The notes under the pieces: generated by a model
Seen by the model: only the letters and a program-made list of their open reading frames with translations
Told to the model about the DNA's origin: nothing
Database searches by the model: none
NCBI GenBank assembly: GCA_020186115.1
Contig: WSYJ01000138.1
Span: forward strand, 310,001-374,000
Direction of reading: 5' to 3'
Length of the DNA: 64,000 bases
From: Histomonas meleagridis
Lineage: Eukaryota > Parabasalia > Tritrichomonadida > Dientamoebidae
Program-made: the position numbers and the translations under genes
In this document: positions 5,655 to 36,583 of the stretch, piece by piece
Numbering within the stretch: the stretch's first letter is position 1
Layout: each line of letters begins with the position of its first letter

Positions 5655-5665
5655 ATGCAAATTTT
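5638..5665. repeat. Perfect 28-bp palindrome over the start codon of ankyrin gene A
   Basis: Positions 5638-5665 are a perfect inverted repeat with no spacer, centred on TTTCGAAA. The right arm contains the ATG at 5655-5657. In RNA it would fold the start codon into a stem; in DNA it could be a dimeric factor site or cruciform. Confidence 0.8.
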
Positions 5666-6899
5666 ACGGGAACTCGAGCAAATCATATTCAACATAAATG
5701 AAAAAAATCTTTCACTATCAGTTGATAATACAATACGTTGTTTTGACAAAAATTTTTCATACACATTCAATGCTTCCGTATGTTTATTAGTTTTTTCTGC
5801 TTTTTCTTCACAAAACAATTTAAGCGATGTATACTTAAATTATTTACATTTAATTCAAGCAAAAGAAGAAGAAATAAACAATAATATCCCAAAAATATTT
5901 GATATTTTTTCGTATCAAATCACTTCTATTTTCCAAACTAAAATACAAGAAACATGTTATCTTATTGAAAAAATGATTGTACAAAAATTAGCCCGGCCAA
6001 ATATTAATAAAATAACTACAAAATATTTTGCACATTATAAATCAGAAAAATTAAATAAACTTCAACTTAATTTTGATTTGTTGGAAAATACTTTTTTAAA
6101 TAATTACGAAGAACTTTCCAAAAACAATTGGGAACTTCATAAACAATTCATTAAAGAAGGACATAATCCAAATGAAATTTCAAAAATAATTCGAAACGAT
6201 GAAATAGAAAAACTTCAAGAAATATCATCACAAAGTAATTTTGATTTTAACCAAAAAATTGAACCATCACTTTATGAAAGTTGTTCATTTATTAATCAAA
6301 GAAATGTTACATTAATTGATTATGCAGCATTTTTTGGATCAATTAAATGTTTCAAATTTTTGCTTATGAATGGTGCATATGTAATGAACGCAGGTAAATA
6401 TGCAGTTGCAGGTGGAAATGAAGAAATTATTCATTTATGTGAACAAAATCATTCATCATTTAAAGATGCATATGAAACAGCAATTGAATTCCATCGAAAT
6501 GATATTTTTAAATATATTTATGAAAATAAAATTGAAGATATTAATAGGTTAAAAGAATTAGGAGAAAAATGTGTTTCATGTTTTAATTATGAAATTTTTA
6601 CATATTTAGAAAAAGAAGGAATGAAAATTAATAAAAATATCATTAATGAAGCAGCAAGAACTGGAAACTTATATCTTTTTAAATATTTATTACAAAATGA
6701 GCAAATTCCAAAAGATACTTTATTTTTTTCTATTCGATCAAATAACCATGAATTAGTTAAATTACTTCTTGAACAAGAAGGAATTGATATTAATGCTAAA
6801 GATATTTATTTGTTTTATTTGATATTTATTTTAATGATTTTATATTTCAAAATAATATTTGGAAATTATTTAAATTATTTGATACAGCACTTATTTTAG
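5655..6899 (+). CDS. Ankyrin gene A, DUF3447-type N-terminal part
   Basis: From the first in-frame ATG the frame runs 414 codons. It matches ankyrin gene B at 33.7 kb along its length: an N-terminal helical region, then EISKIIRNDEIEKLQE, then TLIDYAAFFGSIKCFKFLLM (the DUF3447/ankyrin motif of trichomonad proteins), then degenerate ankyrin repeats up to LVKLLLEQEGIDINAKD. After NAKD at 6803 the frame enters an AT-rich spacer and stops at 6899, inside the next ankyrin module read in the wrong frame. The module chain continues in shifted frames to 9007. The gene's true product therefore depends on whether the spacers are removed. The family probably mediates protein binding; no partner is evident. 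A GTG at 5607 could extend the frame but matches nothing in gene B. Confidence 0.75.
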   Translation: MQILRELEQIIFNINEKNLSLSVDNTIRCFDKNFSYTFNASVCLLVFSAFSSQNNLSDVYLNYLHLIQAKEEEINNNIPKIFDIFSYQITSIFQTKIQETCYLIEKMIVQKLARPNINKITTKYFAHYKSEKLNKLQLNFDLLENTFLNNYEELSKNNWELHKQFIKEGHNPNEISKIIRNDEIEKLQEISSQSNFDFNQKIEPSLYESCSFINQRNVTLIDYAAFFGSIKCFKFLLMNGAYVMNAGKYAVAGGNEEIIHLCEQNHSSFKDAYETAIEFHRNDIFKYIYENKIEDINRLKELGEKCVSCFNYEIFTYLEKEGMKINKNIINEAARTGNLYLFKYLLQNEQIPKDTLFFSIRSNNHELVKLLLEQEGIDINAKDIYLFYLIFILMILYFKIIFGNYLNYLIQHLF

Positions 6900-9007
6900 C
6901 ATCTTTAAATGGTCATACAGAAATAGTTAAATTACTTCTTGAACAAAATGGAATTGATATTAATGCTAAAGATATTTATTTGTTTTATTTAAAATTTATT
7001 TTAATAATTTTCTATTTCAAAATAATATATGGAAATTATTTAAATTATTTCAAACAGCACTTATGAAAGCATCTTCAAAAGGTTATACAGAAATAGTTCA
7101 ATTACTTCTTGAAAAAGAAGGAATTGATATTAATGCTAAAAATATTTATTTGTTTTATTTAATATTTATTTTAATAATTTTATATTTCAAAATAATATTT
7201 GGAAATTATTTAAAATATTTGATACAGCACTTATGAAAGCATCTCGATATGGTTATACAGAAATAGTTCAATTACTTCTTGAAAAAGAAGGAATTGTTAT
7301 TAATGCTAAAGATATTTTTTTGTTTTATTCGAAATTTCTATTTCAAAACAATATTTGGAAATTATTCAAATTATTTGTAACAGCACTTATTTTAGCATCG
7401 AAATATGGTCATACAGAAATAGTTAAATTACTTCTTGAACAAGAAGGAATTGATATTAATGCTAAAGATATTTATTTGTTTTATTTAAAATTTATTTTAA
7501 TAATTTTCTATTTCAAAATAATATATGGAAATTATTTAAATTATTTCAAACAGCACTTATTTTAGCATCTGAAAGAGGTGATATAGAAATAGTTCAATTA
7601 CTTCTTGAAAAAGAAGGAATTGATATTAATGCTAAAGATATTCATTTGTTTTATTTAAAATTTATTTTAATAATTTTCTATTTCAAAATAATATATGGAA
7701 ATTATTTAAATTATTTCAAACAGCACTTATTTTAGCATCTGAAAGAGGTGATATAGAAATAGTTCAATTACTTCTTGAAAAAGAAGGAATTGATATTAAT
7801 GCTAAAGATATTCATTTGAATAATTTGAAATATGTTTTAATAATTTGAAACAGCACTTCATATAGCAGTTAGAAATAATAATATAGAAATTGTAAAATTA
7901 CTTTTAGATAAAGAAGGAATTGATGTTAATGCAAAAGACATTCATTTTGATAATTTAAAATATGTTTTAATAATTTGAAATATGTTTTAATAATTTGGAA
8001 TATGTTTTAATAATTTGAAACAGCACTTCATATAGCAGTTAAAAATAATAATATAGAAATAGTAAAATTACTTTTAGATAAAGAAGGAATTGATGTTAAT
8101 GCAAAAACTATTCATTTGAATAATTTAAAATATGTTTTAATAATTTATAATATGTTTTAATAATTTGGAATATGTATATATAACTTGAAATATATTCTAA
8201 CAATTTGAAACAGCACTTATTTTGGCATTAATAAAAAATCATTCTATGATTGCTCAATTACTTCTTGAACAAAAAGGAATTAAAGTTAATACTAAAGATT
8301 TATGTTCTAATTATTTGTTATTTATTTAATTGATTTAATATTTCAAAACAATTAATGGAAATTATTCAAAGTATTTAGAACAGCACTTATATGTGCAACA
8401 CTTAAAAATGATACAGAAATAGTAGATTTAATTCTTAAGAAAGAAGGTGTTGATATTAATGCCAAAAATGTTTATATATTTCATTTAATATTTTATTAAA
8501 AAGCTTTGTGTTTCAAAACATTTTATGGAAATAAATTAAATTATTTTGGACAGCTCTTATGATTGCATCCGCAAATGATTATATTAACATAGTTAAACTC
8601 TTACTTAAGCAAAAAGGAATTGATTTAAATGCTAAAAATGTTTAATCGTTTGTTTTGATATTTATTTTTTTATTGTAATATTTCAATACATTATTTGGAT
8701 ATCATAAAAATAATTTAGAACAGCTTTTATAATAGCATCCAAAAATGGTAAAACAAATATAATTAAAATCCTTAGTAAACAAGAAGGAATAGATACCAAT
8801 TTGATTGTTGTTCATATACTTTATTCGATATATATTTTTGATATTTAAAGTTTTTTATAATAATTTAAAACAGTTTTTTTCAAAAAATATAAAAAAGAAC
8901 TCTTTTTTTACTCATCCATATTTTGTTTTTTTATAATTTTGTTAATAATTTTCTTTTATGTAAGAAATAATTTTTATGCATTTTTTTTGGGATTTTTTAA
9001 TCCCTAA
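6804..9007 (+). repeat. Ankyrin module array A: 90-nt modules separated by frame-breaking spacers
   Basis: Modules start (ACA of TALxLA) at 6884, 7054, 7224, 7380, 7550, 7720, 7850, 8020, 8210, 8380, 8550, 8720 and 8870. The first twelve encode exactly 30 residues of the form TALxxAS-x-GHTEIVKLLLEQEGIDINAKD, with no stop or indel. The spacers between them are 80, 80, 80, 66, 80, 80, 40, 80, 100, 80, 80, 80 and 60 nt. Most change frame and many contain stops. The typical spacer starts ATTTATTTGTTTTATTT and ends ATATTTGGAAATTATTTAAA plus about a dozen bases. Modules from 8210 on have diverged in sequence but keep their length. The last module, from 8870, reads on to TAA at 9005-9007 through a hydrophobic stretch. 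Confidence 0.9.
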
Positions 9008-9219: not shown

Positions 9220-10038
9220 TTACTCTATACTTGGAAAAAGAATTTTTATTTTTGTTAACAATTCAATCATTTGCGAAGTTGGTTTACTTTGTCTTATTAT
9301 GGCGTATATTTCATTAATAACATTAATGTCAAATGAATTAATATATTTTTGCGTTATGATGTTACTTATAATTTGTATTAAAACATCAAAAACTTTCGTT
9401 TGATTGCAATATAACTTAATGAGATTTAAAAGTTCGTCAAGAAATTTACTTTTGACTAAATGCATTGCAATTTCATCTTCTATAATACAATTGTGTATCA
9501 TAATTAAAGATGTTTCAAACGTTTTGGCATTAATTGATTTTGAAAGACAATTTTCTTTGACATAATCTAAAACATTTATGACAAATGATTTGAACTCTTT
9601 AAGTAGTAAATGTCTTGTGTCTTTTGATTGAAATAAATTCGCAAATATTCCAATTGTCGCATTTTGGATATCATCATTTGGTTCGTTAAGAAGTAATTCA
9701 ACAATAATTGGAATGACGGAATTGGTTTTAATGATGGACAAACAGTTTTGTTCTTTCGATGATAATATCCAAATTGAATTCAACATTGAAGTAAGTAAAC
9801 TTTCATTAGAACTGAAATAATCATTAACTACACGTTTTAGCCATAAATCTTCATTTTGTAATTCCGTTTCTAATTCGTCATTTTCTTCTTGAATCTTTAC
9901 TAATGAAGAACGATCATTTTTTAATATTTCTTCTGATTGATTAACAAACTCTTGAGCTTCTTTTTTCATATACATTGTCATTTTCTCCAGTTCAGAGAGG
10001 TACATCAGAAAGCATTGGCACTCATCGCGTACATTCAT
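9220..10038 (-). CDS. Armadillo-like helical protein, unknown function
   Basis: The 272-residue product begins with about 70 residues predicted to form a charged coiled coil (EKMTMYMKKEAQEFVNQSEE and what follows). It continues with repeated helical pairs of armadillo/HEAT type, for example NSVIPIIVELLLNEPNDDIQ followed by ATIGIFANLFQSKDTRHLLL. Such repeats form a solenoid for protein binding. I do not recognise a specific orthologue. It is a complete frame with ATG, and TCACA lies upstream as an Inr candidate (10049-10053). It converges with ankyrin gene A across a 212-bp AT-rich gap. Confidence 0.7.
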   Translation of the reverse strand: MNVRDECQCFLMYLSELEKMTMYMKKEAQEFVNQSEEILKNDRSSLVKIQEENDELETELQNEDLWLKRVVNDYFSSNESLLTSMLNSIWILSSKEQNCLSIIKTNSVIPIIVELLLNEPNDDIQNATIGIFANLFQSKDTRHLLLKEFKSFVINVLDYVKENCLSKSINAKTFETSLIMIHNCIIEDEIAMHLVKSKFLDELLNLIKLYCNQTKVFDVLIQIISNIITQKYINSFDINVINEIYAIIRQSKPTSQMIELLTKIKILFPSIE

Positions 10039-10616
10039 CTAAAATAAATGTGAAATAACATCAATTTGAACATCAAAATTTGATTTCACGACATGTGATA
10101 TGAAATATCGTTTAAAATTTTTTGTTTTTGCTTAAATTGGTAAAAATTGATGCATGATTTCAAGTTTATTACTAAAAACTAAATCAGCAATACACAACAT
10201 GCAATTTATTAAAATAATTTGCAAATAGATTTTTCATAATTTAATATCACAAAAAATAAAAATTTATTTGCTTAGTATTTGCAAACTCCCAGCAGATACC
10301 ATGGTGCCTTTATTGATTATTTTAGTTAAATTCATGAGCTAAATTTAAAACTTGTAAAAATTTGTTTTTTTAATTCTATTTTTATTATGAAATTTTATTA
10401 CACTTTAGCCGTAAGATCTATGCTTTATGAATTTGAATTATTGATTAAAACAGATTTCTATTATTTGTGAGAAATATCAATATTTGAAAATATCTTTAAA
10501 TAACGTTATTCTATCGTATACCGTTTAAGCACATTTTTTCTTCAAAAATTCAATGCTTTATTTCTGATCAGATTCACCACTTTTACAGGTTCAAAGCTAG
10601 TTAAAACTCAGTTAAA
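10039..10616. other. Divergent promoter region, otherwise nothing recognised
   Basis: 578 bp between two divergently transcribed genes. An Inr-like TCACA lies at 10049-10053 on the minus strand. I see no coding frame, RNA gene or repeat. Confidence 0.5.
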
Positions 10617-11720
10617 ATGAAGATCATTGAACTCGATTCACATCCATTGATCGAAGCATTTAGAACCATTGCTTGCAATTTTAAAAATGATCCATCATTA
10701 ATGTATCATCTTTTACTTCCACCCGAATATAATATTGGAAATTTAACAGATCCTCTTCTTTATTTATTTGTTGAAGATGAGTCAAACATGAACATACTCA
10801 AACAATACGGTAATGGGAAGTATGTGCTTAAACAAGAAAATAACATTCTGATTCCTATTGAAGGTTTTGATCATAAAATTTGCTTCGAAATTCTACAAAC
10901 TACACCATGTTCTACAACCAACGGGTTTACATTTGAAATGGAAGAAGTTGCTGTGAATCCTTTTATTCCATCACCAATTCCTCCTTTATGTAATGAAATC
11001 CAAGTTGGTTATGAAAATCCATCAAATGCACTTCAATTCCTTAAAACCAGGATACGTTCTCCTGCTCTTCCAGCAGTTCTTCAAGAACTTGAAGCAGTTG
11101 CCTCTAAAACAAAAATTACAATTTCAAATCGATATCAAGTCCTTGAAATGATACACTCATACATGGACAAAATAAGTGACATTGTTTTTACAGTTGTACC
11201 ATTCCATTATATTCCAACCATGTTTAAGATGAGAACAAATTTCATAATTTTTTATGCAGTAGCCAACCTTTTCCATGCAAAACTTCTTAAGGTATATCAC
11301 AGTGCCCTCGAAAAGGACAATCGTGAAGCGCAGAAAGCTGTTCGTGAACCTGTCTCATCGATTGGTGATCCTGTCAAACTTGACAAAGCAGCAACACATT
11401 TACGTAACTTACATCAGATGAAAAATGTGGAGTCTGGAATTAAGATGGTAACAGACTTCTTTGATGGCGTAATGGCATCATTACCAGATGCTAATGCAGC
11501 AGCAGATGATATTCTCCCAGCAGTCTGCGATGGGATGTCAAGGTACGGGAAAAATTCATCATACTTAGTGTCTAGTTTCCAGTACTTGGCCGAAATTTGG
11601 CAGTCTGATGGACTGGACCAAAAAATAACGTACATTTTGGTAACGTGCTCCATTGCAGCATCACATTTCGCATCTGGACCAAGAATGACGCCGATAGAAA
11701 AGCCGATACGTAAGATATAG
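10617..11720 (+). CDS. VPS9-domain protein, probable Rab5-family GEF
   Basis: The 367-residue protein has an unassigned N-terminal half and a helical C-terminal half. The latter carries FHYIPTMFKMRTNFIIFYAV and, near residue 300, AAADDILPAVCDGMSRYGK, followed by YLVSSFQYLAEIW and a last helix YILVTCSIAASHF. The spacing and the ADDILP motif match the VPS9 catalytic domain, which loads GTP onto Rab5/Vps21-type GTPases on early endosomes. In the canonical motif the aspartate before LP contacts the nucleotide-binding site and is present here. No Rabaptin-binding, SH2 or RA domain is visible. ATG start. It converges with the Nup155 gene across 720 bp. Confidence 0.7.
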   Translation: MKIIELDSHPLIEAFRTIACNFKNDPSLMYHLLLPPEYNIGNLTDPLLYLFVEDESNMNILKQYGNGKYVLKQENNILIPIEGFDHKICFEILQTTPCSTTNGFTFEMEEVAVNPFIPSPIPPLCNEIQVGYENPSNALQFLKTRIRSPALPAVLQELEAVASKTKITISNRYQVLEMIHSYMDKISDIVFTVVPFHYIPTMFKMRTNFIIFYAVANLFHAKLLKVYHSALEKDNREAQKAVREPVSSIGDPVKLDKAATHLRNLHQMKNVESGIKMVTDFFDGVMASLPDANAAADDILPAVCDGMSRYGKNSSYLVSSFQYLAEIWQSDGLDQKITYILVTCSIAASHFASGPRMTPIEKPIRKI

Positions 11721-12440
11721 AAAATGGGCAGTTACCATTTTGTCATTATGAGGTAATCTCATTTTATTAAAAGATTTATGACGTATTTATCTCCTATTAT
11801 TGATAATAAATAGTTCCGAACTCTAATTTTTTCAAATGATTTTTTTTTATATAAATAAAATGCTTTCTCTAAAATAGAAAAATATTATCAAATTAATTAT
11901 AACAAGCAAAGATGGCATACTCCAGTTACCTGAACTAAACGCTTCAAAGATAGATAAAGATTTGAATCGAACAACAAATATATGCAAAATAATTAAATGC
12001 TTTGTGAAATTGACTTTAAGTTGAAATGTTTAAGCTACTTTCGTTCCATGATTTATACACTAAAGTCCTTAAAGTTATGAATTTTGAACCTGGTACAGTA
12101 AAATTTTTAAACTGTATATAAGATCTTGAGAAGAAATGATTCATCAAAAACTGTAAAAAGAAGCAAAACAAATATTTAGTAGGGTTGGTTCTTCCAACAA
12201 ATGTGTTTAAGGTATAATATATAATATAATGAATACCTTATTATATGTAATATAGAGGAAAATTATATTGTATTAAAATCAAATACACGTGGTGTATTTT
12301 AAATTATTTGCATTATATTTTATTTGAACATTATCACAATAGTCTCTTTACTTATCAATTTTTCAAATAAATTTACTTCTAAATTTCTCATTAATTAATT
12401 TAATATTTTTCTTAAAAACAACTGATTTAAATTATATCTT
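11721..12440. other. Convergent intergenic region with a small hairpin
   Basis: 720 bp between the 3' ends of the VPS9 gene and Nup155. No coding frame is seen. An inverted repeat AAATACAC-GTG-GTGTATTT lies at 12281-12299. It contains CACGTG and may simply be a 3'-end hairpin. Confidence 0.5.
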
Positions 12441-15400
12441 TTATTCATTAGAAAGGAGGAATTTTATTTCTTCATGATAAGGCTGACTTTCATCCGAAGT
12501 TACCTTTTTAACAAAGTCTGAAATCAGATCATAGTTTCCATCACATCCTTGTTTCAGCACCCACAGTGCGTTATATATCAATTTGTTTCTCCTTTTCACA
12601 GATAAGTCATTACAAATCGGACTTCTTAACATCTCTACGTAACCATTATATATATCAAATTTCGGAATTCCGAATCTTATTAATGTTTCAGGCACCCAAT
12701 TTACCACGAAATGCTTTGACTTTGCAAAGTCTTCGAACGTTGGAATGAACAAAGAAGTCTTTAATACGCATGAATTAGGTTTAAGTTCATGAAACACTTT
12801 ACCCAATTTCAATTTAATTTCATCTTCCGAAACGCAATCCAAACCAAATATCAAATGATCCCATGCATCAATTATTTTAATATCTCTATTTTCCAATGAT
12901 GTAAAGTTCATAATTTCATAAATTTGGAGAACGTTATTCCACAAATCCAAATTGATAGCTTTATCCAAAAGTTCGTCGATTGAGAGCAAAGCCGTTGCGA
13001 ATTCGTCAGATTTTGTAAACCTGTAAATTGACTTTTGAATTTTTGCTAAATCGTTATAATAATTTGCTTCTTCCAAACATTTATAATTATTAATAATTTT
13101 CGAATAATTAATAGCTAATTGGATCCATTCTATTCTTTTCTCGATATTAATATCAGAATCAGATACAATCAAAGTATGTAATAACTCATTAATTGCAGAT
13201 TCATAATCATTCACAGACACGTAATATTGCCAAAGTAATTCGCGCGCATTATCCATTAAGTAATCTCTAAGATAAGGAGACTTAATACTTAATAACCTTT
13301 CGATCTCATTCGAATTAAATAATCGTTGGAAGATACATAAATGTAACATCTCATCATCGCACTTAAGTATCGCTTCCATTCCTTCATCAGTATAAACTAT
13401 TTCGATCACTGATTCATAACATTGATATATTTGATTAAACATTCGTTCGCCATTATAATCGTCTGGATCGCATCCATTCTTAAACCAATAATAACCTCGT
13501 TGATTCTCATCAATTGAATGTACTCGTGACACAACAATATTAATCGCTCGTTCATATTGATGTAATTGGATAAGGATACTGCAAACTAAAACTAAGTTAA
13601 TCTCGTACTCACTGTAATGGATTAATGTCGCAACTGATTGTTCTATAAGTTGCTTTTGTTCTTTCTCTTCAACATTAGGCGCCATCTCTAAGTCATGAAT
13701 AGCTTGTTCTAGGCGATACTCTGCCGATAATGTAAAGTGTGGACATTCTGTGCATATTTCGGCTGATAAATTGGTTAAATCGTTTTCGTTAGGTATTACT
13801 TCAATTAGTTTGGAAACAAATGTACGTAATGCTGATTCTAATGATAGCGTAGAATCGGGTGAATATATGGGTTGAAGAATAAGACGTCTATAAGTGGATT
13901 TGTCAATTTGATCAAAAGCAACTTTAATTAATTGTGATATTTTTCGTGATTTAATGATTTGTAAAAATCGAATAAGTTCGATCATTAAATTTATAAGACT
14001 TATGAGTTCATCAAGTAAATCTGAACATTCCTCTGTTAATTCTGTGGTGGTTTTGTATGACTTGATTAAATTTAATATATGATTAAGTTTTTGGATATAT
14101 TCAATTTGGATTGTTTTGATAATGGGATTGACTTTAATGGTGATTGGAGTTGTGAAAAAGCATGGTGAACCCCAGAGAAGATTAAATAGGCGAGATACAT
14201 ATACAAAAAATGAATGTGTAATGTGTGTAAGTGGCTTAGGTGTAGAGTCTTCTTTATATGGAAGAAGTTTTTCACATTCAGTACTAATGAACATTGAGTT
14301 TGGATCATCTGATGAAATCAATAAACAACATGCAAAGGATTCATCGTTCGATGAATAACAATTCATCCAATCATGAACTGTTTTATCATAACATCCATGG
14401 TTTTGTGCAATAATTCGTTTAATTGTTGTTGCAGGTGGTAACAAATTGACTTTAAAGCTTCCTACTGTAGTTAAGACATAAACAGGAGGTGGAGTAATGA
14501 GGTATTGCCAAGTTATAGGATATTTAACAAAGTAATTTTGGTTGAAGTAAACATGCGGGAGACCGTTTATCTTCAAACCGTTTCCATCAATTGGAATTTC
14601 TGCAATAAACTCTGATCCTTCGAAGGTATCAGCACGACAAACTACAAATTTATCATTACAAATGAATAATGTAAACCCAAGGATATAATAACCATCCTTA
14701 ACAATTCTATCACTTAATTCAACTGGAGGAGAACGCTTACCACGAAGTCCAATTCCAGAAACAAGTGAAAATAACTTCTTTGTAGTACCAAAATAAAGTC
14801 TTTCACCTTTTGATGTAAATGCAATTAAACGTATTTCATCAGAATCAGATAATGGAACTAATGAAATTGACGCAATTTTGGTTCCTTTAGGTGGAATAAA
14901 GATTTCTGATTTCTGAAGTCCTTGTGAAAAGTTGAAATTAAACATTAAAATTCGATTATCTTCATCAAGAGCACCAATGAATTCACTTGAACTATCATAA
15001 ATAATTTTTGTGATCTGTGGTTTCTTTTTAAGTAACAAAAGTTTTGGAAGGAAATTATACCATTTTGTCGATACATTTGTAATTTCGAGTCTAGTTCCTT
15101 CAGTAATCTTTTCCAGCTCCATAAATTTGCACATATGTATACACCCATCAGAACCACCGATTAAAAATTGACCAAAATCACCATCCATACATAAAGGCGC
15201 AAAATCTAATTGGATAAAATCAGAAAATTCTGGTGAAATTCTATCATTAGCTATTGGAAATAATTTAATAAACGAAGGCGTCCCTATAACTACTAGAGAT
15301 GAAACTGATTTAGGATAATATTCTCTTGGTGCAATAATTGTACACACAGAAGTAATTGTTTCTTCTTCAACAGTGATGCTTTCATATGTAGGAATTCCAT

Positions 15401-15722
15401 TTGTTCTCCAAAAGATAATTTTATTGTCAAGAATAGAATAAAATCTGTCTATTTTTGGAAGGCAACCAATATCTGCACATTTTGAAGATGAAGCGTAATG
15501 ATAATTTACTTCATCTGGAAATTGAGCATTTTCTGTTATTGTATACATATCTTCTTGTTCTGAACATTGATAATATTTTGGTTCAATATTTGAACCAACC
15601 ACACTAAAAAAAGACAAAGAATTATTGTCCTTTGTAGCGCAATCAACAATTTGCTGTATAGCTCTTCCTGCAATTAGATCATCTGAAAAGATTTGAGATT
15701 GATCCATGGAAGAGTGTGGCAT
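12441..15722 (-). CDS. NUP155: Nucleoporin Nup155/Nup170 homologue
   Basis: From the ATG (MPHSSMDQSQ...) the product is 1093 residues. A TTG ten codons upstream is not used. The N-terminal beta-propeller shows CLPKIDRFYSILDNKIIFW, an IGTPSFIKLFP strand, FLIGGSDGCIHM and ITKIIYDSSSEFIGALDEDN, all typical of Nup155/Nup170. The C-terminal half is an alpha-solenoid (LHQYERAINIV, YYVSNDYESAINELL-like helices). The protein is a scaffold of the inner ring of the nuclear pore and binds membrane and Nup93-type partners. Its length is somewhat short of the roughly 1400 residues usual in animals and yeast. Its 5' end is divergent from the small gene at 15792, only 69 bp away, so the two likely share a promoter. 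Confidence 0.88.
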   Translation of the reverse strand: MPHSSMDQSQIFSDDLIAGRAIQQIVDCATKDNNSLSFFSVVGSNIEPKYYQCSEQEDMYTITENAQFPDEVNYHYASSSKCADIGCLPKIDRFYSILDNKIIFWRTNGIPTYESITVEEETITSVCTIIAPREYYPKSVSSLVVIGTPSFIKLFPIANDRISPEFSDFIQLDFAPLCMDGDFGQFLIGGSDGCIHMCKFMELEKITEGTRLEITNVSTKWYNFLPKLLLLKKKPQITKIIYDSSSEFIGALDEDNRILMFNFNFSQGLQKSEIFIPPKGTKIASISLVPLSDSDEIRLIAFTSKGERLYFGTTKKLFSLVSGIGLRGKRSPPVELSDRIVKDGYYILGFTLFICNDKFVVCRADTFEGSEFIAEIPIDGNGLKINGLPHVYFNQNYFVKYPITWQYLITPPPVYVLTTVGSFKVNLLPPATTIKRIIAQNHGCYDKTVHDWMNCYSSNDESFACCLLISSDDPNSMFISTECEKLLPYKEDSTPKPLTHITHSFFVYVSRLFNLLWGSPCFFTTPITIKVNPIIKTIQIEYIQKLNHILNLIKSYKTTTELTEECSDLLDELISLINLMIELIRFLQIIKSRKISQLIKVAFDQIDKSTYRRLILQPIYSPDSTLSLESALRTFVSKLIEVIPNENDLTNLSAEICTECPHFTLSAEYRLEQAIHDLEMAPNVEEKEQKQLIEQSVATLIHYSEYEINLVLVCSILIQLHQYERAINIVVSRVHSIDENQRGYYWFKNGCDPDDYNGERMFNQIYQCYESVIEIVYTDEGMEAILKCDDEMLHLCIFQRLFNSNEIERLLSIKSPYLRDYLMDNARELLWQYYVSVNDYESAINELLHTLIVSDSDINIEKRIEWIQLAINYSKIINNYKCLEEANYYNDLAKIQKSIYRFTKSDEFATALLSIDELLDKAINLDLWNNVLQIYEIMNFTSLENRDIKIIDAWDHLIFGLDCVSEDEIKLKLGKVFHELKPNSCVLKTSLFIPTFEDFAKSKHFVVNWVPETLIRFGIPKFDIYNGYVEMLRSPICNDLSVKRRNKLIYNALWVLKQGCDGNYDLISDFVKKVTSDESQPYHEEIKFLLSNE

Positions 15723-15791
15723 TTCATAAAACAATTCAAATTTCTTTGACAAATATTTTTTGATTCTTGGCCAATAATTTCAAGATTTTAA

Positions 15792-16154
15792 ATGGACGAT
15801 TTTGATATAGAAGAAGTAGGAAATAAACAAAATACAGAGCCAGATGATAAAATTGTAGTTAGACGAAGTGATGATCAATACATAAATGATAAAATTCAAA
15901 TGAGTAATTTAAATTTATCATTAGATCTTCTTGAAGATTTCATAGAAACAGATGAAAATAAAATAATAAATCCCCTTGAATTCGAACCAACCTCAACCAG
16001 TGATTATAGATTATATATGAAAACGATTATACAAATTTTTAATCAAATTAATCCTCAAGATCATGTCGAATGTATCAAAATTCTTATAGATTATCTTGCA
16101 GATAGATTTTGTTCTAGACAACTTCAAGAACTTTCAGAAAATATTGTTGCATGA
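15792..16154 (+). CDS. Small acidic protein, unknown
   Basis: This is a complete 120-residue frame with an acidic, probably disordered N-terminus (MDDFDIEEVGNK...). The C-terminus is helical, including YRLYMKTIIQIFNQINPQDH and ILIDYLADRFCSRQLQELSE. I do not recognise the family. It is squeezed between the divergent Nup155 (69 bp) and the convergent DRC7 gene (12 bp). The compact arrangement and sensible composition suggest a real gene. Confidence 0.6.
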   Translation: MDDFDIEEVGNKQNTEPDDKIVVRRSDDQYINDKIQMSNLNLSLDLLEDFIETDENKIINPLEFEPTSTSDYRLYMKTIIQIFNQINPQDHVECIKILIDYLADRFCSRQLQELSENIVA

Positions 16155-31488: not shown

Positions 31489-32688
31489 TTATTCAAATGT
31501 GAACGATGAAATTGTATTTATATATTTACTATAAAATGTAATCGAAAGTGTAATAGACAATGACTGCGTTAAAGTGCACGAATGTGTTAAAGTTACATCC
31601 GATGGATAAGCAACTGATGCAGTGAATGTGTTCGACTTAGTGAATGTATCACTTTGTGTCAATGTGAATATGCTTGTTGGGGGAGACATTCGTCAAATGT
31701 TGTCCCTTAGTAATATTCATATTTCCAAATGTTTCATTTTGATATGTTTTTAATGTCATAAATGTTGTCGCATTTATGTTAACAAATGCACCATTTTATA
31801 TTTCTGGTGAAGTTTCTCCATTAAAATGAATACATTGAAGTGATGTACAATTAGTAAATGCGCAAGAATTAATATAATGAACATTTTCACCAATAAAAAT
31901 TGTTTCTAAATTATTCTTGCAAATGCATAATCCTTAATAGAAGTGACTGAATTGTGATTGTTTTACTTTTCCCATTCGGATGAATAATAATTTGTGTAAT
32001 TTCTTTCCATATAAACCCCATCATTTTCATAAACCAATATTAAAAATTTTAAACTGAAACTTTAATAAATTGAAGTTTTGTACATTCTAAAAATGCATTT
32101 CCGATCGAATAAACAGAACTTGGTATATAAATATTCACAAGGTTTGTACATCCTCTGAATGCATCAGATCCAATACTTCGTACGCCTACATCTAAAGTTA
32201 ATGTTTCAAGTCCTGTACATTTCGAAAATGCATTATCACCAATGAATTGTAACATTAATTAATGAAATACATTCATAAAATGCACCATCTCCAATTGAAC
32301 TCAATGTTTTATCTTGAAATGGTACATATTCTAATTTTTTACATGATGCATATGCTCCATTATTTATAGTTTCAACTGTTTCTCCAATTATTACTGTTGT
32401 TAATAAAGGCCATTCTCTGAACGCATTATTTTCAAGCTCTCCAACATTAATAATTATAACACGTTTTGTAACATTCATATACTCTTTTGATAGATCATAT
32501 AAATCAATAAATAATGTGAGTGTTTTTGTCTCTGCTTCATATGATTGCATTGTATTAACAAAAAATATAATCAATAAAATTGGAATAACTTCGTTTTTTT
32601 TTTTTTTTTTTTTTTTTTGATTAATGCTTTTCTGATCAAAATAAATTTTGGATAAGGAAGTAAAAACATTGAATATAAATACGAACAA
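31489..32688 (-). pseudogene. BspA-like leucine-rich surface protein, multiply broken
   Basis: Minus-strand fragments add up to one BspA (TpLRR/LRR_5) protein. A hydrophobic signal-like segment (VIPILLIIFFVNT) comes first, then repeats such as LSSIGDGAFYECISLINVTI, FIGDNAFSKCTGLETLTLD, SIGSDAFRGCTNLVNIYIPS and NSCAFTNCTSLQCIHFNGET. A Thr/Ser-rich region follows (TLTQSDTFTKSNTFTASV), ending at 31489. Breaks: a frameshift near 32240-32250, a stop near 32049, a further stop in the third fragment near 31795, and no ATG. A T25 run at 32594-32618 sits where the start should be. BspA-like proteins are the largest surface family of trichomonads; this copy is dead. Confidence 0.8.
32594..32618. repeat. 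Homopolymer T25
   Basis: An uninterrupted run of 25 T on the plus strand, coding for lysines on the minus strand just before the BspA signal-like segment. It may have replaced the original start region. Confidence 0.9.
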
Positions 32689-33699: not shown

Positions 33700-35067
33700 A
33701 TGGAAATCATTAAAGCACTTAATAACATAGTGGTAAACTTAAGAAAAGAAAATATTGAACATTCTGTTGAAAAAATAATGAATTTATATGATTCAAATTA
33801 CCCTTACACGTTTAATCTTATCATTTGTAAGATGGTTCAAACTCACATTTCATTAAATTGGGAAAACTGTAATAGTTATTTATGTTTTTTGCAAACATTA
33901 CAAAAATCAGAAGAAAAAGAACATCCTAATCAACCTAAAATATTTAGTATTTTCGAAAATATTCTGGAGAAAAGTTATAAACATGAAGCATTTTATTTGT
34001 TGGATAAAATGATCGAATGTAATCTAATTAATTCGAAAATTACAAAAGACATCAAAATAAAATATTTTGCACATTATAAGACAGAAGAAGAAAACAAGAA
34101 AAGATATTTTAATTTTGATCTATTTGAAGAAGCTTTTCTTAATAATTATACAGAACTTTCAAGGAATGATTTTGAACTTCACAAAAAATATGTTAAAGAA
34201 GGAGTTAATCCAAATGAAATTGAAAAAATAATTCGAAATGATGAAATAGAAAAACTTCAAGAAATAACATCACAAAATGATTTTGATTTTGACCAAACAA
34301 TTAAACCATCACTTTATGAAAGATGTGATTATATTAACAATTATACTAAAGATGAAGGAGTTACGTTAATTGATTATGCAGCATTTTTTGGATCAGTTAA
34401 ATGCTTTAAATATTTACTTATGAATGGTGCAAATATTAAAAAAACAGGGAAATATGCTGTTGCAAGTGGAAATCTTGAAATCATTCATTTATGTAAGCAA
34501 AATAATTCATCTTTTAAAGGTTCATACAAAGCTGCTATTAAATTTCATCAAAATGATATTTTTCATTTCCTTTATGAAAACAAATTTGAAGATTTTAATA
34601 ACCAAAAATCACCAATTAAATTTATCAATATTTTGGGTGCAACTTGTATTTCTTATGATAACTATGAAATTTTATCATTTTTGGAAGAAGAAGGAATGGA
34701 GCCAGATCAATACATCATTAATAGAGCTTCAACAATTGGAAATTTATATCTTGTCAAATATTTTATAAAAAATAATCCTACTCCTAAAGATATTTTAGTT
34801 TTCTCCGTCATATCAAAAAATATTGAACTTGTTAAATATCTTCTTGAGCAAAATCTAATTGATATTAATGCTAAAAATATTTATTTGTTTTATTTAACAT
34901 TTATTTTAATAATTTCTTATTTCAAAATAATATTTGGAAATTCTTTAAATTATTTCAAACAGCACTTATTGATGCATCTCAATATGGTTATACAGAAATA
35001 TTTATATTACTTCTTGAACAAGAAGGAATTGATGTTAATGCTAAAGATATTTATTTGTTTTATTTAA
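33700..35067 (+). CDS. Ankyrin gene B, DUF3447-type N-terminal part
   Basis: The ATG follows a TTG that would add one residue. The 455-codon frame begins with a helical N-terminal domain (EIIKALNNIVVNLRKENIEH), continues with NEIEKIIRNDEIEKLQEITS, then LIDYAAFFGSVKCFKYLLMN, the DUF3447/ankyrin motif, and further degenerate repeats to VKYLLEQNLIDINAKN. From about 34879 the frame runs into the same type of spacer as gene A and ends at 35065-35067, within the second module. It is a close paralogue of gene A, 28 kb away, and of the solo domain at 61.7 kb. The full product, if the spacers are removed, would run to 36583. Confidence 0.75.
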   Translation: MEIIKALNNIVVNLRKENIEHSVEKIMNLYDSNYPYTFNLIICKMVQTHISLNWENCNSYLCFLQTLQKSEEKEHPNQPKIFSIFENILEKSYKHEAFYLLDKMIECNLINSKITKDIKIKYFAHYKTEEENKKRYFNFDLFEEAFLNNYTELSRNDFELHKKYVKEGVNPNEIEKIIRNDEIEKLQEITSQNDFDFDQTIKPSLYERCDYINNYTKDEGVTLIDYAAFFGSVKCFKYLLMNGANIKKTGKYAVASGNLEIIHLCKQNNSSFKGSYKAAIKFHQNDIFHFLYENKFEDFNNQKSPIKFINILGATCISYDNYEILSFLEEEGMEPDQYIINRASTIGNLYLVKYFIKNNPTPKDILVFSVISKNIELVKYLLEQNLIDINAKNIYLFYLTFILIISYFKIIFGNSLNYFKQHLLMHLNMVIQKYLYYFLNKKELMLMLKIFICFI

Positions 35068-36583
35068 CATTTATTTTAATAATTTCTTATTTCAAAATAA
35101 TATTTGGAAATTATTTAAATTATTTTATACAGCACTTATTGATGCATCTCAATATGGTTATACAGAAATAGTTAAATTACTTCTTGAACAAGAAGGAATT
35201 GATGTTAATGCTAAAGATATTTATTTGTTTTAATTGTTATATATTTTAATAATTTCATATTTCAAAATAATATTTGAAAATTATTTAAAATATTTGGAAC
35301 AGCACTTATTTATGCATCTTCAAAAGGTTATACAGAAATAGTTAAATTACTTCTTGACAAAGAAGGAATTGTTATTAATGCTAAAGATATTTATTTGTTT
35401 TATTTTTCATTTATTTTTTTAATTTCATATTTCAAAATAATATTTGGAAATTATTTAAGTTATTTGCTACAGCACTTATGTTAGCATCTTATAAAGGTTA
35501 TACCGAAATAGTTAAATTACTTCTTGAACAAAAAGGTATTGATATTAAAGCTAAAGATATTTATTTGTTTTATTTGAAATTTATTTTAATAATTTGGAAA
35601 TTCAAAATAATATTTGGAAATTATTTTATATATTTAAAACAGCACTTATAAAAGCATCTGAAAATGGTCATATAGAAATAGTTAAATTACTTCTTGAACA
35701 AAAAGGAATTAATATTAACGCTCAAGATATTTATTTGTTTTATTCAAAATTTATTTTAATAATTTTCTATTTCAAAAAAATATTTGGAAATTATTTTATA
35801 TATTTAAAACAGCACTTATGAAAGCATCTGAAAAAGGTTATACAGAAATCGTTAAATTACTTCTTGAACAAAAAGGAATTAATATTAACGCTAAAGATAT
35901 TTATTTGTTTTATTCAAAATTTATTTTAATAATTTTTTATTTCAAAATATTATTTGGATATTATTTAAATTATTTAATACAGCACTTATATGGGCATCTT
36001 CAAAAGGTTATACAGAAATAGTTAAATTACTTCTTGAAAAAGAAGGAATTGTTATTAATGCTAAAGATATTTATTTGTTTTAATTGTTATATATTTTAAT
36101 AATTTGGAAATTCAAAATAATATTTGGAAATTATTTAAATTATTTAATACAGCACTTATTTATGCATCTGCACATGGTCATCTAGAAATAGTTAAATTGC
36201 TTCTTAAGCAAGAAGGAATCAATATTAATGCTAAAAATATTTATTTGTTTTATTTAAAATTTTTTATAATAATTTAATATTTCAAAATAATATTTGGAAA
36301 TTCTTTAAATTATTTCAAACATCACACATAGTGGCATCTTTAAATGGTCATACAGAAATAGTTAATTTACTTCTAGAACAAAAAGGAAATGATATTAATA
36401 CTCAGACTATTTTTTTATATTAATTTGTATTTATTTCAATAGTTCAAAGTTTAAAATTAATATTTGAAAATTCATTTCTTTTTCTTATGTGAAACAGCAC
36501 TTACATCAATAGCATCAAGTAAAGAAATAATGAAATATTTCAATTACCAGATGTACCACAAAGAAATAGAAACTAAAAATTAG
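34879..36583 (+). repeat. Ankyrin module array B: nine modules at an exact 170-bp period, then a terminal module
   Basis: Module starts (ACA of TALxxAS) are at 34959, 35129, 35299, 35469, 35639, 35809, 35979, 36149 and 36319: eight successive intervals of exactly 170 bp. Each is 90 nt of clean ankyrin code plus 80 nt of spacer. The terminal module starts at 36494 after an 85-nt spacer and reads TALTSIASSKEIMKYF to an in-frame TAG at 36581-36583, a sensible C-terminus. 170 is not a multiple of three, so each spacer changes frame. The spacers match those of gene A closely. Confidence 0.9.

What the first reader, a model, noticed from the sequence alone, without database searches (positions are those of the whole stretch)
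6804..8869. Frame-breaking spacers between every ankyrin module of gene A, with clean modules either side
Twelve ankyrin modules of exactly 90 nt (360 codons in all) contain no stop and no indel although the DNA is strongly AT-rich and unprotected sequence would be expected to fill with TAA, TAG and TGA. The spacers between them break frame (80 nt is not a multiple of three) and some contain stops, yet sit at exactly one structural point, between NAKD and TALxLA. Modules that have diverged in sequence (8210-8720) still keep the 90+80 length. Purifying selection on modules with non-coding spacers is what introns, or other removed segments, would give. A trichomonad gene with about twelve introns would be unprecedented, since few introns are known in this group.
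Basis: partly seen in the sequence, partly recalled or inferred. Interest (0 to 1): 0.92.

Follow-up and report, generated by a model that had tools for sequence, protein, structure and literature searches.

The report
Ankyrin genes interrupted every codon
In a poultry gut parasite, a large family of ankyrin-repeat genes has 17-letter inserts between single codons of each repeat's loop; the cell probably removes dozens of these per gene, by a mechanism that matches no known kind of intron.

Summary
In window gene A (about 5655-9007) and gene B (about 33700-36583), intact 90-nt ankyrin modules alternate with frame-breaking, mostly 80-nt spacers. The spacer is not one intron-like block. It is four 17-nt A/T-rich elements separated by single codons: 17-NNN-17-NNN-17-GGA-17-NNN. 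The four isolated triplets are the ankyrin loop D-x-x-G-x-T. In 214 distinct 80-nt spacers they hold no stop (about 38 expected from independent columns), and the third is Gly in 188. Among 68 spacers of other lengths, 49 are 17k+6, 9, 12 or 15 nt. Gene A parses into 49 elements. The genome has at least 4,092 such loops (control 8). The published annotation lists 573 introns, at most one per gene. The modules are under coding constraint. Elements are almost never GT..AG (2 of 856). Best explanation: RNA-level removal of ultra-short, non-GT-AG introns with single-codon exons. Removal itself is inferred, because no RNA data were available. The organism matches Histomonas meleagridis.

The parts
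5655..6803 (+). Gene A, N-terminal coding part (DUF3447 plus first ankyrin module, 6714-6803); open frame starts at GTG 5607, first ATG in frame at 5655
   Evidence: ORF list; Pfam DUF3447 5.8e-12 and Ank_2 3.3e-12; start read from translation
6804..6883 (+). Loop 1: 17-nt elements 6804-6820, 6824-6840, 6844-6860, 6864-6880; codons GAT TAT GGA GAT (D Y G D)
   Evidence: parse
6884..6973 (+). Ankyrin module TALILASLNGHTEIVKLLLEQNGIDINAKD; 11 more start at 7054, 7224, 7380, 7550, 7720, 7850, 8020, 8210, 8380, 8550, 8720
6974..7053 (+). Loop 2: four 17-nt elements, codons K S G Q
7144..7223 (+). Loop 3: four 17-nt elements, codons N Y G D
7314..7379 (+). Loop 4 (66 nt): three 17-nt elements, codons E I S G V
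7470..7549 (+). Loop 5: four 17-nt elements, codons K S G Q
7640..7719 (+). Loop 6: four 17-nt elements, codons K S G Q
7810..7849 (+). Loop 7 (40 nt): two 17-nt elements, codons E E
7940..8019 (+). Loop 8: four 17-nt elements (another element family, ATATGTTTTAATAATTT), codons K E G E
8110..8209 (+). Loop 9 (100 nt): five 17-nt elements, codons K I G E E
8300..8379 (+). Loop 10: four 17-nt elements (diverged), codons V N G R
8470..8549 (+). Loop 11: four 17-nt elements (diverged), codons N C G W
8640..8719 (+). Loop 12: four 17-nt elements (diverged), codons D N G R
8810..8869 (+). Loop 13 (60 nt): three 17-nt elements, codons D K K
8870..9007 (+). Last coding piece of gene A: open for 45 codons with a hydrophobic, membrane-helix-like stretch, ends in TAA
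   Evidence: translation; sequence
33700..34878 (+). Gene B, N-terminal coding part of the same family, with first module 34789-34878
   Evidence: ORF list
34879..36408 (+). Gene B array: nine 80-nt loops of four 17-nt elements each, alternating with modules at 34959, 35129, 35299, 35469, 35639, 35809, 35979, 36149, 36319
36409..36493 (+). Gene B last loop, 85 nt: does not fit the 17-nt rule (three 17-nt pieces and one of about 22 nt)
   Evidence: sequence, read by hand; the scripted parse was given a wrong end (36491)
36494..36583 (+). Gene B last coding piece: degenerate cap module, 29 codons, ends in TAG
   Evidence: sequence, read by hand

Best explanation
Shown: the spacers are series of 17-nt A/T-rich intervening sequences (consensus ATTT-N9-ATTT) placed between codons, so that in the common 80-nt form each codon of the ankyrin beta-hairpin loop (x33, x1, G2, x3) stands alone as a 3-nt coding island. 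Counting each element as nothing leaves one continuous frame from module to module. Inferred: the elements are removed from the transcript, about 49 times in gene A, as ultra-short introns of tightly fixed length by a splicing activity that does not use GT and AG. The nearest precedent in size is the spliceosome of Stentor, which removes 15-16-nt introns. Inferred function: the family (at least about a hundred genes) encodes ankyrin proteins whose ligand-contact residues are diversified; the nearly constant elements give matching DNA between units where duplication and conversion can shuffle modules without touching codons.
For: 1) Isolated triplets at columns 18, 38, 58, 78 of 214 distinct 80-nt spacers: 0 stops (5.6, 11.8, 0 and 20.9 expected from independent columns); residues mostly K/N/D/E, then Y/D/N among others, then G (188 of 214), then N/E/K/W/R/Q/D/Y, i.e. 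the D-x-x-G-x-T loop. In 53 mutually diverged spacers this offset has 0 stops of 212, the most triplet types of 20 offsets (38) and Gly at slot 3 in 47 of 53; offset 17 has 88 stops; offsets 1 and 2 also have 0 stops, but few triplet types (20, 18) and no Gly at slot 3. 2) Length arithmetic: 282 of 300 spacers, and 49 of the 68 that follow a 90-nt module and are not 80 nt, are 17k+{6,9,12,15}. The pattern with one codon between D and element 2, as if element 1 were missing and its codon kept, occurs 102 times (control 0). 3) The triplets evolve unlike the elements beside them: in 3,591 unit pairs whose elements differ by less than 3%, elements differ at 2.1% of sites, but triplets x33, x1 and x3 at 36, 43 and 50%, and G2 at 6%. 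4) A distant relative, L041, has clean loops (VDGM, KDGL) and loops with one 17-nt element (KFD-17-M, ENG-17-N) in one gene. 5) Modules: 6 stops in 8,970 codons; in far pairs framework position 2 differs 0.13 against 0.29 at position 3 and 0.31 in elements. 6) Scale: 4,092 loops with TTTGGA exactly 20 nt before ACAGC (control 8). 7) Spliceosomal U2 (two copies, above cut-off) and a U6 candidate (43.7 bits, just under 44) are present.
Against: No transcript was seen. Elements lack GT..AG (2 of 856), so the known spliceosome would have to be altered or another machinery used. In about 258 kb scanned for switches of coding frame, 55 of 76 clusters by my reading lie in ankyrin arrays; none of the other 21 was shown to be a 17-nt element, and they were not followed one by one, so no general intron class is shown. 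Exact patterns for loops lacking only element 3 or only element 4 gave 0 hits (element 2 not tested), so single precise loss is seen for element 1 only. Some elements are 16 or 18 nt, and 18 of 300 spacers miss the length rule; gene B's last loop misses it too. The parses favour 17 nt by their scoring. In the closest pairs elements (2.1%) are more alike than third codon positions (7.9%), so they are not simply neutral there, though those pairs were chosen by element likeness. Units are related by duplication, so counts are not independent events.
Confidence: 0.6

Rival explanations
1. Translational bypassing: the ribosome skips each 17-nt element, and the mRNA keeps them.
For: Fixed length and position between whole codons would suit a hop; no known splice signals are seen.
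Against: Known bypassing re-pairs the peptidyl-tRNA with a matching landing codon (recalled): the codon before an element equals its last triplet in 10 of 856. Six folded loops show no unusual structure, z from -1.35 to +1.17. About 49 hops in one protein would need very high efficiency.
Confidence: 0.12
2. Dead or silent arrays: only the N-terminal open frame with its first module is expressed (stop in loop 1); the rest is a decaying tail or a store of donor modules for gene conversion.
For: Two of the three NCBI H. meleagridis models found (P0020, P0021) appear to stop at the first loop. Units are alike across loci, often above 90% identity.
Against: Near absence of stops in interior modules, coding constraint on triplets inside the loops, and last modules that stay open in frame longer than in the other frames (medians 16.5 against 7 and 3 codons) before a stop (weak). 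No interruption-free copy with the same words was found to act as expressed recipient: the exact pattern with a gap of 3-32 nt gave 1 hit, and that one (L037) is an ordinary 80-nt loop whose fourth element happens to contain AATGCTAAA.
Confidence: 0.13
3. One intron per spacer: about 68-80 nt removed in one piece.
For: Would also restore the frame. With a loop of 1-5 codons left, an AT..AC segment fits 230 of 277 spacers and a TT..TT one 275 of 277, but such matches are cheap in this A/T-rich DNA; without that limit the commonest AT..AC positions cut 7 nt into the next module.
Against: Leaves unexplained the stop-free, Gly-at-third triplets inside the spacer and the 17-nt arithmetic. GT-AG fits 52 of 277 with no limit on what is left and 19 of 277 with a loop of 1-5 codons.
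Confidence: 0.06
4. DNA-level elimination of the elements from a somatic genome.
For: Precise short inserts resemble eliminated sequences of ciliates (recalled).
Against: TA at both junctions in only 144 of 856 elements; no nuclear dimorphism is known in parabasalids (recalled); no loop of the exact words without elements was found in the assembly.
Confidence: 0.03
5. The spacers are translated with a frameshift and form an inserted loop.
For: 197 of 245 spacers of length 2 mod 3 could be read with a single change of frame, and 18 of 31 of length 0 mod 3 are open throughout.
Against: 48 of 245 and 13 of 31 cannot. Element sites change about as often as third codon positions in far pairs (0.31 against 0.29). 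The isolated-triplet pattern is not explained.
Confidence: 0.04

Closest known systems
Ultra-short spliceosomal introns of the ciliate Stentor coeruleus (15-16 nt; PMC9505925, passages read)
   Same: Nearly fixed length, very A/U-rich; the size shows that a spliceosome can cut out such pieces.
   Different: Stentor introns have the common 5' and 3' splice sites of the major spliceosome and an A at position 10 in about 91%. Here 2 of 856 are GT..AG, length is 17, and neighbouring elements are mostly one codon apart.
Trichomonas vaginalis type B introns (23-25 nt; PMC12316389, passages read)
   Same: Very short introns in a parabasalid; some T. vaginalis intron-containing genes have ankyrin or leucine-rich repeats.
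   Different: GT/AG with a branch site (ACTAA) fused to the 3' motif; 63 active introns in that genome. The 12-mer ACTAACACACAG (recalled) occurs 3 times here, against 2 for its reversed control.
Translational bypassing (phage T4 gene 60, mitochondrial byps; recalled, and listings)
   Same: Non-coding gaps within a reading frame.
   Different: No matching take-off and landing codons (10 of 856), no hairpin signal in six loops.
Ankyrin/DUF3447 proteins of tritrichomonads
   Same: Same domain family; T. foetus, T. musculus and metagenome relatives found. Several protein models end at the same loop with F/Y/I/L-rich tails (e.g. P0004, P0018, P0039, P0050).
   Different: Only their proteins were available, so element length there is not shown.

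Membership tests
U2-type spliceosomal introns | GT at the 5' end and AG at the 3' end | tested here: not met
   GT start 38 of 856 and AG end 2 of 856 elements; both together 2 of 856. One GT-AG intron per spacer leaving 1-5 loop codons in phase: 19 of 277; no limit: 52 of 277.
U2-type spliceosomal introns | Trichomonad fused branch/3' site, tested as ACTAACACACAG (motif recalled) | tested here: not met
   3 in the genome against 2 in the reversed control.
U2-type spliceosomal introns | Sequence must be removed to keep the coding frame | tested here: met
   17k+3c length rule, loop codons, module constraint. Inference from sequence.
U2-type spliceosomal introns | Spliceosomal snRNAs in the genome | tested here: inconclusive
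   U2 two copies above cut-off; U6 one candidate at 43.7 bits, cut-off 44. U1, U4, U5 not searched; the sequences could not be fetched.
U2-type spliceosomal introns | Removed in mature mRNA | not testable with these tools
   No RNA data.
U12-type AT-AC introns | AT start and AC end | tested here: not met
   4 of 856 elements. As one segment per spacer leaving 1-5 codons, AT..AC fits 230 of 277, with TT..TT fitting 275 of 277, so this fit carries little weight.
Translational bypassing (gene 60, byps) | Take-off codon matches the landing site | tested here: not met
   10 of 856.
Translational bypassing (gene 60, byps) | Structured gap | tested here: not met
   Six loops folded, z -1.35 to 1.17.
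Ciliate-type internal eliminated sequences | TA at both boundaries | tested here: not met
   144 of 856.
Ankyrin repeat proteins | Repeat with T-A/P-L, helix pair and D-x-x-G-x loop | tested here: met
   Pfam Ank_2 and DUF3447 on gene A's N-terminal part; module and loop residues.

The most novel reading that the evidence does not exclude
A new class of intervening sequence: 17-nt, non-GT-AG mini-introns that isolate single codons as 3-nt exons, present in at least about 4,000 ankyrin loops (some 10,000-16,000 elements, my estimate) of one parasite genome that is annotated with 573 introns. They would be removed by a length-measuring splicing machinery, and would serve as constant recombination blocks around hypervariable ankyrin contact codons.
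Probability: 0.45. Interest if true: 0.96.

Novelty: categorically new. Interest (0 to 1): 0.9.

Why it matters
If the elements are removed from RNA, this is the densest interruption of coding sequence known to me: exons of one codon and introns of 17 nt without the usual splice sites. It would show what a spliceosome, or something else, can do at its physical limit. It would also overturn the view of this genome as intron-poor, bring out a family of at least about a hundred diversified ankyrin genes that is hardly visible among its public proteins, and give a directly testable system: one RT-PCR answers it. If they are not removed from RNA, the alternative (skipping of about 49 gaps by the ribosome) would be equally surprising.

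Tried and rejected
Single GT-AG, GC-AG, AT-AC intron per spacer. Direct-repeat excision at TTATTT (wrong frame; worked out by hand). Conserved RNA structure (six loops). Read-through with one frameshift. Relatives in viral contigs (none) and in genome contigs (one contaminant contig, without an array). Frame-switch scan for elements outside ankyrin arrays: 21 of 76 clusters, not followed one by one. Papers: of all papers cited I saw passages or listings only. Searches that listed no report of such elements.
Full report
What the window is. The window lies at C74:310001-374000 of a 43.28-Mb, 121-contig assembly. A protein search with gene A's N-terminal part returns 58 proteins, three of them named Histomonas meleagridis; one lies on a contig of 984,133 bases, the length of C74, and one on a contig of 3,384,422 bases. 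Both agree with the published virulent-strain genome (43.4 Mb, largest contig 3,384,422, GC 28.66%, but 187 contigs; PMC8529796, passages read). That paper reports 573 introns (638 in the attenuated strain), at most one per gene, and it is not among the two papers found with Histomonas and ankyrin.

Observation. Gene A (about 5655-9007) has an open N-terminal part with DUF3447 and an ankyrin module, then 12 more modules of exactly 90 nt separated by spacers of 40 to 100 nt, mostly 80. Gene B (about 33700-36583) repeats the design. In the window plus 38 loci, interior 90-nt modules (299) hold 6 stops in 8,970 codons, against 566 and 1,569 of 8,671 in the other frames. Module detection used a protein profile, which favours intact modules; that inflates the contrast somewhat. 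Copies in overlapping loci were not removed in that count; from then on, identical module-spacer copies were.

What the spacers are. Per-column differences between closely related units showed that inside the otherwise constant spacer a few columns vary as strongly as the hypervariable module codons (18, 20, 38, 39, 78-80), and columns 58-60 are mostly GGA. This gives the reading 17-NNN-17-NNN-17-GGA-17-NNN. Tests: (a) in 214 distinct 80-nt spacers the four triplets contain no stop, where independent columns would give 5.6, 11.8, 0 and 20.9; their residues are mostly K/N/D/E, then Y/D/N and others, then G in 188 of 214, then N/E/K/W/R/Q/D/Y. That is the ankyrin loop D-x-x-G-x-T, also seen in loops without elements in the same genome (G at that place in 18 of 31 loops caught by a loose pattern, some of them chance matches). 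(b) In 53 spacers at least 16 differences apart from each other, the offset stands out: 0 stops of 212, 38 triplet types, Gly at slot 3 in 47; offsets 1 and 2 also have no stops, but few triplet types and no Gly; offset 17 has 88 stops. (c) Lengths: 282 of 300 spacers, and 49 of the 68 non-80-nt spacers behind 90-nt modules, are 17k+{6,9,12,15}. Spacers of 63 nt mostly parse as the 80-nt form without the first element, codon kept; an exact pattern for this form occurs 102 times, control 0 (15 strings shown). Exact patterns for loss of element 3 or 4 alone gave none. (d) In 3,591 unit pairs whose elements differ at under 3% of sites, the triplets differ at 36% (x33), 43% (x1), 6% (G2) and 50% (x3), elements at 2.1%. 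Relatedness of units makes these counts non-independent, but the contrast between adjacent columns is not made by it.

Elements. Of 1,065 parsed elements 1,033 are 17 nt (the parse prefers 17, and 856 of them come from 80-nt spacers). Consensus A1 T2 T3 T4 ... A14 T15 T16 T17. In 53 diverged spacers positions 3 and 4 are T in 79-92% in each slot, position 2 in 91% in slots 1-3, while in slot 4 A prevails at position 2. In far pairs the ends differ less (0.23) than the middle (0.37), and elements as a whole (0.31) change about as fast as third codon positions (0.29) while framework second positions stay at 0.13; in the closest pairs elements are more alike than third positions (0.021 against 0.079), though these pairs were picked by element likeness. 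So the elements look close to neutral in their middle and constrained in length, phase and ends.

Independent relatives. L041, a distant ankyrin gene of the same genome, mixes clean loops (VDGM, KDGL), loops with one 17-nt element (KFD-17-M, ENG-17-N) and, by eye, a loop D-17-NE-17-G-17-W. L045 shows by eye K-17-DVYG-18-H and K-17-CFRG-17-C.

Scale. The pattern TTTGGA-N20-ACAGC, i.e. Gly codon, 17 nt, one codon, module start, occurs 4,092 times (control 8). With up to four elements per loop this suggests of the order of 10,000-16,000 elements; that product is my estimate. The N-terminal domain matches at 104 places, all candidates that were scored. Ankyrin genes without elements, with long open frames, also exist here (e.g. 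903 to 1,578 codons).

Selection on the protein. Between near units, module codons 5 and 8 (ankyrin positions 8 and 11) differ at 54-75% of sites, codon 9 at 17-42%, and the codon before the module at 30-70%, while the spacer differs at 5.8% and framework second positions at 4%. These are positions that contact ligands in ankyrin proteins (recalled). This looks like a diversified binding repertoire, and it argues that modules and isolated loop codons are translated together. It also makes pN/pS uninformative for the whole module (1.18 to 0.73).

Mechanism. Elements must be absent from what the ribosome reads, or skipped. GT..AG is nearly absent (2 of 856), AT..AC 4 of 856, TA at both junctions 144 of 856, take-off codon equal to last triplet 10 of 856. 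One GT-AG intron per spacer leaving 1-5 codons fits 19 of 277; A/T dinucleotide pairs fit up to 275 of 277, which says little in such DNA. Folding shows nothing special in six loops. U2 and probably U6 snRNAs exist. The tight length recalls the 15-16-nt introns of Stentor (PMC9505925, passages read). I therefore hold RNA-level removal as ultra-short, non-GT-AG introns most likely (0.6). Shown: the architecture and the coding constraint. Inferred: removal, its machinery, and the role in module shuffling.

Limits. Elements outside ankyrin loops were sought only in about 258 kb, where 55 of 76 frame-switch clusters lie in arrays by my reading.

Noticed in passing
8870-9007: The last coding piece of gene A is 45 codons with a long hydrophobic stretch that could anchor the protein in a membrane; gene B instead ends in a degenerate ankyrin cap (36494-36583).
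   Followed up: partly
36409-36493: Gene B's last loop (85 nt) breaks the 17-nt rule; its last intervening piece is about 22 nt.
   Followed up: partly
7810-8209: Loops 7-9 of gene A use a second element family (ATATGTTTTAATAATTT) also seen in loci L036 and L046, with visible 20-nt (element plus codon) tandem copies.
   Followed up: partly
window minus strand near 32280: What looks like a BspA-type leucine-rich-repeat gene (by motif, recalled; no family search) shows a switch of coding frame without a 17-nt element; perhaps a pseudogene or a small indel.
   Followed up: no
Proteins P0017, P0020, P0021 (H. meleagridis): Only three public proteins named for this species were among the 58 hits (query length limits candidates to about 220-700 aa) although the domain matches at 104 genome places; they are named cask-interacting protein, two appear to end at the first loop, and P0017 and P0021 carry low-complexity inserts.
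   Followed up: partly
whole genome: The T. vaginalis-type 12-mer ACTAACACACAG is no more frequent than its reversed control (3 against 2), so splice signals in this lineage may differ generally.
   Followed up: partly
L048 (CALUSQ010000040.1): A contig in a bacterial MAG (Candidatus Gastranaerophilales) encodes a relative of the N-terminal domain (47% identity) and a long ORF that looks like a DDE-type transposase (by motif, recalled): probably eukaryotic contamination of the MAG.
   Followed up: partly
module codons 5, 8, 9 and loop codons: Hypervariability is near saturation between units whose elements are nearly identical; whether selection alone or targeted mutation produces it is open.
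   Followed up: partly
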